From Promethearchaeota archaeon (GTDB lineage Archaea; Asgardarchaeota; Lokiarchaeia; Sigyniarchaeales; SOKP01), in contig JAEOTH010000021.1 of NCBI GenBank assembly GCA_016839915.1, positions 1 to 40,198 of the forward strand: 40,198 nt of DNA. The letters run 5' to 3'. The position numbers and the translations under genes are program-made. Below, piece after piece: positions 16,840 to 30,819 of the stretch (the first letter of the stretch is position 1; every line of letters starts with the position of its first letter). The notes below the pieces were generated by a model, which worked only from the letters and a program-made list of their open reading frames with translations, searched no databases and was not told the origin of the DNA.

Positions 16840-16946
16840 TGGCGCCCACAGCGGGATTTGAACCCGCGTCGCAGGAGCTCTGTACTCTGTCTAAATAACA
16901 TGAGATTGACAGTCCCGAATGCTAGACCGTACTACACTATGTGGGC
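16840..16946 (-). tRNA. tRNA-Asp(GUC) with 29-nt intron at 37/38
   Basis: Acceptor GCCCACA pairs with TGTGGGC, discriminator G, and CCA is encoded (16840-16842). The T-arm is GCGGG-TTCAAAT-CCCGC. The anticodon stem CGGGA/TCCTG holds GTC. An intron of 29 nt occupies 16878-16906, just after A37, the canonical archaeal site. CTGT of the 5' exon pairs with ACAG near the intron's end, giving a 4-bp central helix with 3-nt bulges CA|A and AG|C for the splicing endonuclease. The mature tRNA is 75 nt plus CCA. Confidence 0.9.
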
Positions 16947-17705: not shown

Positions 17706-17809
17706 GGGCCTGTAATCTAGTCTGGATAGGGTGCCCGGCTTCGGACTGGGATATTAAGTGGATAAGTCCATTTAACCCAAAGTCGCAGGTTCGAATCCTG
17801 CCAGGCCCA
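17706..17809 (+). tRNA. tRNA-Arg(UCG) with 29-nt intron in the variable loop
   Basis: Acceptor GGGCCTG pairs with CAGGCCC, discriminator A, CCA not encoded. The D-stem is ATCT/GGGT, the anticodon stem CCCGG/CTGGG with a contiguous loop CTTCGGA (anticodon TCG), and the T-arm GCAGG-TTCGAAT-CCTGC. Between the anticodon stem and T-stem there are 34 nt instead of about 5. TGGG (17747-17750) pairs with CCCA (17776-17779) as the central helix, with bulges AT|A and AA|G. TTAA/TTAA with TGGA/TCCA forms the intron hairpin. Excising 17753-17781 leaves the 5-nt variable loop ATGTC and a 75-nt tRNA. Introns at 45/46 are non-canonical. Confidence 0.85.
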
Positions 17810-27027: not shown

Positions 27028-27161
27028 TGCCAAGGGAGAGAGATTCCAAAAAACTCGAAAAGGGCTTTTTCTTTGAACTCTCGATACCTAGATCTTCAGT
27101 CTAGTGCGTTCCCGGGTTTCGCGGATCTTCAGAAAAAGAAAACCCACTACGCCACCTTGGC
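27028..27161 (-). tRNA. tRNA-Phe(GAA) with two non-canonical introns
   Basis: Acceptor GCCAAGG (27161-27155) pairs with CCTTGGC, discriminator A at 27028, CCA not encoded. The anticodon stem CTAGA/TCTAG holds a continuous loop CTGAAGA (GAA). The D-stem GCGT/ACGC encloses about 39 nt and the T-stem GAGAG/CTCTC about 37 nt, both far too long. Removing 30 nt from the D-loop (27111-27140) leaves AGTGGGTTA, and removing 30 nt from the T-loop (27042-27071) leaves TTCAAAT, giving a 74-nt tRNA with every conserved base. Bulge-helix-bulge forms can be drawn at both sites: TGGG/CCCG in the D-loop and TTCA/GGAA in the T-loop, each with a weak pair. Exact borders may shift by a base. Confidence 0.85.
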
Positions 27162-30147: not shown

Positions 30148-30819
30148 TTAGATTATTTTATGATAGAATTCATAGTAATTAATAATTTTACTAATAACCA
30201 CCCAAGCATCGAGGGAATAATTTGATATTGAAATTACATTATTTGATAAATTTAAAATTTCTTGTGAGAATTTGCTTTTCTGAAACCCACCAATAATTGC
30301 TACGACTGGTTTGGAGGTATCACCAATAAATTTGTAATAGTCATAAATTAGTTTACCTTTACTTGAAAATAGAAAAATTTCTGGATTTTTAAATTTGTCA
30401 ATTAGATTTTGTAAAGTTCCTTCACGTTGAGAAATTAGTTGAATTCCATTTGCATTTATACTACCCTCAATTAGAAGCTTTGCCATTAATCCTTTAAATC
30501 GATTATAATTTCTTGCTATTCTAATATCTGAATCAAATTTAAAAATCTTGTTATTTATGGTATGAATAAATAAGCTTAAATTACCAATCTTATTTAAGGG
30601 GGATCCTAAAGCATTAAGTAAACATAAATGAGCAATATCTGGACGTCCTCTTTTTCCTGGATTGTCCAGATTCTTCATTGCTGTGTGATGTAGGGCATTA
30701 TCTAATAGTTGCGATGCGTAGATTTGTGAAGAAAAATTTTTTCTCACAGCAGAATGGTGTCTTATTTCTCTGGGTATTAATTCTATTCCACAATCTACTA
30801 AGATAATAATTAATGGCAT
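30148..30819 (-). CDS. nep1: Nep1/Emg1 rRNA pseudouridine N1-methyltransferase
   Basis: SPOUT-fold Nep1 methylates the hypermodified pseudouridine of helix 35 in 16S rRNA. LIIILVDCGIELIPREIRHHSAVRKN forms the N-terminal strand-helix, DNPGKRGRPDIAHLCLLNALGSPLNK (about 52-78) carries the diagnostic RGRPDIxH motif, VAIIGGFQKSKFS is the SAM-binding knot region. Family length is 210-250. It is the third gene of a leftward set (YhbY, Rpp21, Nep1), two bases after the Rpp21 stop, and is followed by tRNA-Gly. The eukaryotic ortholog is an essential small-subunit assembly factor. Confidence 0.92.
   Translation of the reverse strand: MPLIIILVDCGIELIPREIRHHSAVRKNFSSQIYASQLLDNALHHTAMKNLDNPGKRGRPDIAHLCLLNALGSPLNKIGNLSLFIHTINNKIFKFDSDIRIARNYNRFKGLMAKLLIEGSINANGIQLISQREGTLQNLIDKFKNPEIFLFSSKGKLIYDYYKFIGDTSKPVVAIIGGFQKSKFSQEILNLSNNVISISNYSLDAWVVISKIINYYEFYHKII

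What the first reader, a model, noticed from the sequence alone, without database searches (positions are those of the whole stretch)
27028..27161. tRNA-Phe gene with two introns in unusual places: D-loop and T-loop, none in the anticodon loop
The anticodon arm is intact and standard, but D-loop and T-loop each contain about 30 extra nt. Removal restores a D-loop AGTGGGTTA and a T-loop TTCAAAT, both fully canonical, and a 74-nt tRNA. Each border can be folded as a relaxed bulge-helix-bulge. In established knowledge, multiple non-canonical introns are mainly known from Thermoproteales; two introns flanking an intact anticodon arm in an Asgard-like genome would broaden that.
Basis: partly seen in the sequence, partly recalled or inferred. 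Interest (0 to 1): 0.8.

Follow-up and report, generated by a model that had tools for sequence, protein, structure and literature searches.

The report
Lokiarchaeal tRNA-Phe with two odd introns
The only phenylalanine tRNA gene found in this draft Lokiarchaeal genome is interrupted twice, in the D-loop and the T-loop, by 30-base introns of the well-known archaeal kind, and close relatives carry anything from none to four introns in the same gene.

Summary
Real. Minus strand 27161-27028 holds a tRNA-Phe(GAA) gene with two 30-nt insertions. Comparison with 31 orthologues of the same family, two of them intron-free, puts the introns at 15/16 (27146-27117) and 59/60 (27071-27042). Both introns fit the strict bulge-helix-bulge (BHB) cut rule with 3 of 4 central pairs and inner helices of 8 and 7 pairs; the 15/16 motif lacks an outer helix. 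Across the family, 75 of 75 scored introns at ten sites have at least 3 of 4 central pairs (mean 3.71; shuffles 1.42). No second tRNA-Phe was found in the draft genome, which encodes two splicing-endonuclease proteins (catalytic alpha, presumed beta) and RtcB. Alpha carries the 'Crenarchaea-specific loop' K-P-R motif; the lysine is kept in all 50 Asgard-phylum copies aligned. The kind is known: multiple non-canonical tRNA introns were published for Asgard Atabeyarchaeia and Freyarchaeia in 2024, and 59/60 is a listed site. Worth following: the intron mosaic (0-4 per gene, differing between sister genomes), the 15/16 site, the loop's wide presence. Splicing itself is inferred, not shown.

The parts
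27028..27161 (-). tRNA-Phe(GAA) gene, 134 nt including A73; mature 74 nt
   Evidence: excision of both introns gives an ARAGORN tRNA-Phe(gaa) and an exact cloverleaf as minimum-energy fold
27147..27161 (-). exon 1, positions 1-15 (GCCAAGGTGGCGTAG)
   Evidence: found with at most 1 mismatch in 32 of 37 genomes of the family, all 32 of them tRNA-Phe genes
27117..27146 (-). intron 1, 30 nt, D-loop, position 15/16; BHB: central GCGT/GCGA 3 of 4, bulges AG|T and AA|C, inner helix GGGUUUUC/GAAGAUCC 8 pairs, outer 1 pair
   Evidence: border unambiguous against the template; 8 of 20000 shuffles match or exceed
27072..27116 (-). exon 2, positions 16-59, with the anticodon arm
27095..27097 (-). anticodon GAA
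27042..27071 (-). intron 2, 30 nt, T-loop, position 59/60; BHB: central TTCA/GGAA 3 of 4, bulges AA|G and TC|T, inner helix 7 pairs, outer helix = T-stem 5 pairs
   Evidence: border unambiguous against the template; 49 of 20000 shuffles match or exceed
27028..27041 (-). exon 3, positions 60-73
30148..30819 (-). EMG1/NEP1 methyltransferase gene, synteny marker upstream of the tRNA; also upstream of the intron-free tRNA-Phe in L087

Best explanation
This is the cell's functional tRNA-Phe(GAA) gene, interrupted by two BHB introns at 15/16 (D-loop) and 59/60 (T-loop). The pre-tRNA folds so that each exon-intron border forms a BHB. The splicing endonuclease, probably an (alpha-beta)2 enzyme whose alpha subunit carries a CSL-type loop with the K-P-R motif, cuts after the second base of each 3-nt bulge, and RtcB joins the exons to a 74-nt tRNA. 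Shown by sequence: borders, BHB geometry, orthologues with and without introns, genes for two endonuclease proteins and the ligase. Inferred: transcription, cleavage, ligation, subunit assembly, and that the loop is what permits the relaxed 15/16 motif, which lacks an outer helix.
For: 32 of 37 family genomes hold the tRNA-Phe 5' half, and all 32 give nearly the same 74-nt mature body once insertions are removed. Intron-free orthologues define the borders: L068, L083, L087. 75 of 75 scored introns have >=3 of 4 central pairs, mean 3.71; the same pairing slid by -6 to +4 gives 0.85-1.79, 2000 shuffles mean 1.42, maximum 1.81 (6 mis-split pieces of L074, L077, L080 left out; where a border was ambiguous the best-pairing shift was taken, which the window's two introns did not need). 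Window introns. The T-stem differs between orthologues with compensation (GAGAG/CTCTC here, GGGAG/CTCCC in L083), which points to selection on the product. Endonuclease alpha with Y/H/K, and a second PF01974 protein. RtcB. No other tRNA-like GACTGAAGATC or 5' half in the genome.
Against: No RNA data. Neither central helix is fully paired (3 of 4), and the 15/16 motif has only one outer pair. Other excisions of the gene also reach 3 central and 5 inner pairs (18 of 3593, among them 4 central + 5 inner at other borders), so the geometry alone does not fix the borders; the orthologues do. The genome is a draft (93.9% complete, 6.9% contamination), so a second tRNA-Phe could be missing from the assembly. 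The unspliced RNA's minimum-energy fold is not much better than shuffles (z -1.70; 12 of 200 as good) and does not show the full BHBs.
Confidence: 0.93

Rival explanations
1. Functional twice-interrupted tRNA-Phe, but with the first reader's D-loop border (5' cut after AGTGGGTT, 3' cut before A-ACGC), giving a D-loop AGTGGGTTA.
For: Central helix TGGG/CCCG pairs 4 of 4 and ARAGORN accepts the product.
Against: Inner helix 1 and outer 0 pairs; the spliced minimum-energy fold is not a cloverleaf. The other 31 orthologues, intron-free ones included, have D-loop AGCCCGGGA (29) or AGCCTGGGA (2: L067, L079) when aligned to the template (the template itself holds AGCCCGGGA, so for interrupted genes this leans towards it). 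Nine other orthologues carry an intron at 15/16; in eight the 3' exon begins CCCGGGAACGC as here, in L061 CCCGG is followed by a second D-loop intron.
Confidence: 0.04
2. Pseudogene: a decayed tRNA-Phe with insertions, the working copy being elsewhere or not assembled.
For: Draft genome; ARAGORN and Rfam at gathering score miss the locus.
Against: All stems fully paired after excision, mature body conserved across the family, insertions obey the BHB rule, no second copy found.
Confidence: 0.02
3. The insertions stay in, or are removed by another route (for example self-splicing or a mobile-element remnant).
For: No splicing data here.
Against: 30-nt introns are far too short for group I or II ribozymes (established knowledge, recalled); BHB geometry at both sites and the presence of endonuclease and ligase genes point to the protein pathway.
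Confidence: 0.01

Closest known systems
Multiple non-canonical tRNA introns of Asgard Atabeyarchaeia and Freyarchaeia (PMC11291895; passages seen)
   Same: Asgard archaea; tRNA genes with several introns at non-canonical positions
   Different: Other Asgard lineages; the positions are in supplementary data that I did not see, so whether 15/16 + 59/60 in tRNA-Phe occurs there is not known to me
Non-canonical tRNA introns of Thermoproteales and other archaea (PMC4090602, PMC8450103; passages seen)
   Same: BHB introns at D, anticodon, variable and T regions, sometimes 2-3 per gene; 59/60, 30/31, 22/23, 53/54 are listed sites
   Different: 15/16 is not in the list of PMC4090602, which ends in 'etc.'; PMC8450103 says up to three introns per archaeal tRNA gene, here 8 of 32 orthologues have four by sequence
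tRNA genes with D-, anticodon- and T-arm introns of Cyanidioschyzon merolae and of nucleomorphs (PMC9602550, start of abstract in a search listing; PMC4090602 passages)
   Same: Introns in D and T arms of one gene; tRNA-Phe(GAA) of the Guillardia theta nucleomorph has two introns
   Different: Eukaryotic
Aeropyrum pernix (alpha-beta)2 splicing endonuclease with the Crenarchaea-specific loop (PDB 3p1z/3ajv; PMC12397907 and PMC6379350, passages)
   Same: Alpha subunit homologous over residues 21-201 of 201 (E 6.6e-37), catalytic Y/H/K and loop K-P-R aligned; a second, separate PF01974 protein
   Different: Asgard, not Crenarchaea; 'Asgard' and 'Lokiarchae' occur nowhere in the main text of either paper

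Membership tests
Archaeal BHB tRNA introns | Excision restores a canonical tRNA | tested here: met
   74-nt tRNA-Phe, exact cloverleaf, ARAGORN tRNA-Phe(gaa)
Archaeal BHB tRNA introns | BHB at the borders: ~4-bp central helix between two 3-nt bulges cut after the second base | tested here: met
   both introns, 3 of 4 central pairs, inner helices 8 and 7; outer helix 5 at 59/60 but only 1 at 15/16 (relaxed form)
Archaeal BHB tRNA introns | Position variable between orthologues, exon body conserved, intron-free relatives exist | tested here: met
   0-4 introns in 32 orthologues, ten sites
Archaeal BHB tRNA introns | Splicing endonuclease and ligase encoded | tested here: met
   two PF01974 genes and one RtcB
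Archaeal BHB tRNA introns | Spliced product and excised introns in the cell | not testable with these tools
   no RNA data
(alpha-beta)2 splicing endonuclease with CSL | Separate catalytic alpha and structural beta subunits | tested here: inconclusive
   two separate ~200-aa proteins; alpha has Y/H/K; that the second protein has Ser where M. jannaschii has the His was read by eye from the alignment; assembly not tested
(alpha-beta)2 splicing endonuclease with CSL | Loop with conserved Lys followed by Pro/Val and a basic residue | tested here: met
   K-P-R in the window genome's alpha, aligned with K44-P45-R46 of A. pernix
(alpha-beta)2 splicing endonuclease with CSL | Broad substrate specificity | not testable with these tools
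   needs an enzyme assay

The most novel reading that the evidence does not exclude
BHB introns are gained, lost and moved between sites within a single Lokiarchaeal genus or family fast enough that sister genomes differ in the same gene (none against two; with or without the 15/16 intron; 15/16 in one and 19/20 in its sister). This is permitted by an alpha-beta endonuclease whose 'Crenarchaea-specific' loop is in truth old and shared by Asgard archaea and Crenarchaea, so that the analogous loop of the eukaryotic TSEN2 may be inherited from an Asgard ancestor rather than convergent, as PMC12397907 proposes.
Probability: 0.25. Interest if true: 0.7.

Novelty: new member of a known kind. Interest (0 to 1): 0.42.

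Why it matters
The single case is one more archaeal tRNA gene with BHB introns. The set around it is more useful: 32 orthologues of one tRNA in one family, with 0-4 introns at ten sites and intron-free members, make intron gain, loss and site switching directly measurable, and the CSL-type loop lysine in all 50 Asgard alpha subunits aligned bears on how the eukaryotic tRNA-splicing enzyme got its broad reach. It also shows that ARAGORN and Rfam can miss such genes, so tRNA counts made with them on Lokiarchaeal genomes may be too low (tRNAscan-SE was not on hand).

Tried and rejected
Rfam and ARAGORN on the raw locus: miss or partial. Plain folding of the pre-tRNA: the minimum-energy fold shows a D-intron hairpin but not the full BHBs, z -1.70; dropped in favour of the cut-rule test. 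A first thought that the window's D intron sits at 19/20 like that of several relatives was rejected: the 3' exon CCCGGGAACGC and the BHB place it at 15/16. The template alignment mis-split the paired T-region introns of L074, L077 and L080 (14+46 instead of about 30+30); those 6 pieces were left out of the 75, but the genes' intron numbers (4, 4, 3) include them. tRNA-Phe was not found in 5 of 37 family genomes (G005, G008, G021, G042, G045) by the 5' half. A second pattern, run on these five and 11 other genomes, hit only G005 and G045 among the five, and neither hit reads as a tRNA; they may hold an intron inside the search word or miss the gene. The 5'-half word also hit six genomes outside the family; the hits I read (L055, L056, L101-L104) are not tRNA-Phe, the two in G033 were not read. 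The RtcB tree has 11 of 23 inner branches starred and holds 25 of the 32 orthologues' genomes: G011, G023, G043, G049, G050 had no RtcB match, G019 and G040 had it in pieces and I left them out. Change counts on it (5-9 per site) are rough, and gain cannot be told from loss. For the genome's other interrupted tRNAs I give borders only for L007, L010, L014 and L015; the best-ranked excisions of L006, L009, L012, L013, L016, L017 and L018 are ambiguous, doubtful or plainly wrong.

Full report
WHAT IS THERE. On the minus strand, 27161 to 27028, lies a tRNA-Phe(GAA) gene of 134 nt. Its anticodon arm is intact. ARAGORN and Rfam at gathering score do not report it; cmscan at a relaxed threshold gives a partial hit with E 0.14.

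WHERE THE INTRONS ARE. A search for the first 15 nt (GCCAAGGTGGCGTAG, at most one mismatch) rang in 32 of 37 searched genomes of the window's family, 17 of 19 of its genus. All 32 are tRNA-Phe genes. Two are intron-free, L068 and L083. L087, a named record (Candidatus Lokiarchaeota archaeon isolate Hel_238_bin13, JABXKB010000260.1), shows the same tRNA region as L068 and has EMG1 upstream in the same orientation at a similar distance as in the window (about 3.3 kb there, 3.0 kb here). An alignment of each gene to the 74-nt mature body with insertions allowed places the window's introns at 15/16 (27146-27117) and 59/60 (27071-27042), each 30 nt, with no shift possible at either border. The mature D-loop is then AGCCCGGGA.

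IS IT MORE THAN CHANCE. Under the strict cut rule (3-nt bulges cut after the second base, 4-nt central helix, inner helix stacked on it) the 15/16 intron has 3 of 4 central, 8 inner and 1 outer pairs; the 59/60 intron 3, 7 and 5. Of 3593 possible excisions of 20-60 nt in the gene, 18 have at least 3 central and 5 inner pairs; by the sum, the 15/16 excision ranks first and the 59/60 excision ties for second with a one-base-in neighbour of the first. With the register fixed, 8 and 49 of 20000 dinucleotide shuffles of the intron do as well. The spliced 74-mer folds to an exact cloverleaf (-24.9 kcal/mol) and is called tRNA-Phe(gaa); the unspliced gene and the gene with only the D intron removed are not called.

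THE FAMILY PICTURE. Introns per gene: none in 2, one in 4, two in 9, three in 9, four in 8, of 32. After leaving out 6 mis-split pieces, 75 introns lie at ten sites: 30/31 (17), 19/20 (15), 59/60 (13), 15/16 (10), 51/52 (8), 37/38 and 58/59 (3 each), 52/53, 22/23, 53/54 (2 each). All 75 have at least 3 of 4 central pairs (53 have 4), mean 3.71; sliding the partner by -6 to +4 gives 0.85-1.79, and 2000 shuffles give mean 1.42, maximum 1.81. Related genomes share introns, so these are not 75 independent cases; 34 distinct site/helix combinations all pass. Where a border was ambiguous the best-pairing shift was taken, which favours the rule a little. Inner helices in the strict register are long in some introns and only 0-2 pairs in many others, and most sites lack an outer helix, so relaxed motifs are common.

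TURNOVER. On an RtcB protein tree of 25 of the 32 orthologues' genomes and one outgroup (11 of 23 inner branches starred) the fewest changes are 7 (15/16), 9 (19/20), 6 (30/31), 9 (51-54 pooled) and 5 (58-60 pooled). Starred sister pairs differ: G001 has none and G013 two; G016 has the 15/16 intron and G010 lacks it; G020 has 19/20 and G048 15/16. The window genome's neighbour on the tree, G004 (support 90/93, not starred), has 19/20 and 30/31 where the window has 15/16; both have 59/60. Gain cannot be told from loss on this tree.

MACHINERY. The genome has two PF01974 genes on other contigs. Alpha (201 aa, L085) matches A. pernix endonuclease 3p1z at 6.6e-37 and carries the catalytic Y/H/K and a loop K-P-R that aligns with K44-P45-R46. 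PMC12397907 (passages) says that changing P45 or R46 drastically reduced A. pernix cleavage and links such loops to diverse intron positions. The second protein (205 aa, L086) matches the family and, read by eye, has Ser where M. jannaschii has the His; I take it as beta. One RtcB gene is present. A search with alpha rang in 118 of 119 genomes sampled from the phylum, in some only by the weaker beta-type match. I aligned 50 of these alpha copies: the 30 delivered as loci (the window's own among them) and 20 that I picked, 19 from other families of the phylum and one (G030) of the same order. All 50 keep the loop lysine and Y/H/K; the next residue is P in 47 of 50 and the third is R or K in 46 of 50.

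REST OF THE GENOME. Of 23 Rfam tRNA hits, 11 are 100-112 nt long and so very probably carry an insertion (L006, L007, L009, L010, L012-L018). The better-resolved ones (L007 Ala, L010 Ala, L014 Arg, L015 Gly) have 4 of 4 central pairs, with introns in the anticodon loop, the D-arm, the variable region and just 3' of the anticodon. tRNA-Phe is thus not an exception in this genome.

KNOWN OR NEW. Asgard Atabeyarchaeia and Freyarchaeia were reported in 2024 with 228 tRNA introns in three genomes, 92-95% of tRNA genes interrupted and over half with several, often non-canonical (PMC11291895, passages). PMC4090602 (passages) lists 59/60, 30/31, 22/23 and 53/54 among known sites; 15/16 is not in that list, which ends in 'etc.'. 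PMC8450103 (passages) says up to three introns per archaeal tRNA gene; a search for 'four introns' with 'pre-tRNA' and 'archaeal' found no paper in the held library, which lacks most subscription papers. Searches for splicing endonuclease with Lokiarchae (3 papers) or Asgard (9 papers) listed no title about the Asgard enzyme (listings only). So the object is a new member of a known kind; the mosaic and the wide presence of the loop are the parts worth following.

Noticed in passing
window 16843-16946 (-) and 17706-17809 (+): Two further tRNA genes of 104 nt with insertions: Asp(GTC)-like, border unresolved, and Arg(TCG), best excision in the variable region with 4 of 4 central and 9 inner pairs.
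   Followed up: partly
window 27117-27146 (-): The D-loop intron contains CTGAAGATC, the same nine letters as the anticodon region; GAAGATC of it pairs within the intron hairpin, so probably coincidence.
   Followed up: no
L061 (G043): tRNA-Phe with two introns in the same D-loop (15/16 and 19/20) plus one at 59/60.
   Followed up: no
L064, L066, L069, L072, L073 and others: The 28-nt intron at 30/31 is nearly the same in sequence across genera (for example L066 and L072), by eye more alike than the introns at other sites; constraint, transfer or recent spread not tested.
   Followed up: no
L105-L134, L136-L155: The 'Crenarchaea-specific loop' lysine of the splicing endonuclease is present in all 50 Asgard-phylum alpha subunits aligned.
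   Followed up: partly
L091, L092, L093 (same order, other family); L090 (same class): tRNA-Phe genes there also look interrupted by eye, in the D-arm or anticodon-stem region, while L030 looks intron-free.
   Followed up: no
L022 (G000:C82:44033-44120): tRNA-Sec gene in the window's genome, Rfam RF01852 60.1 bits.
   Followed up: no
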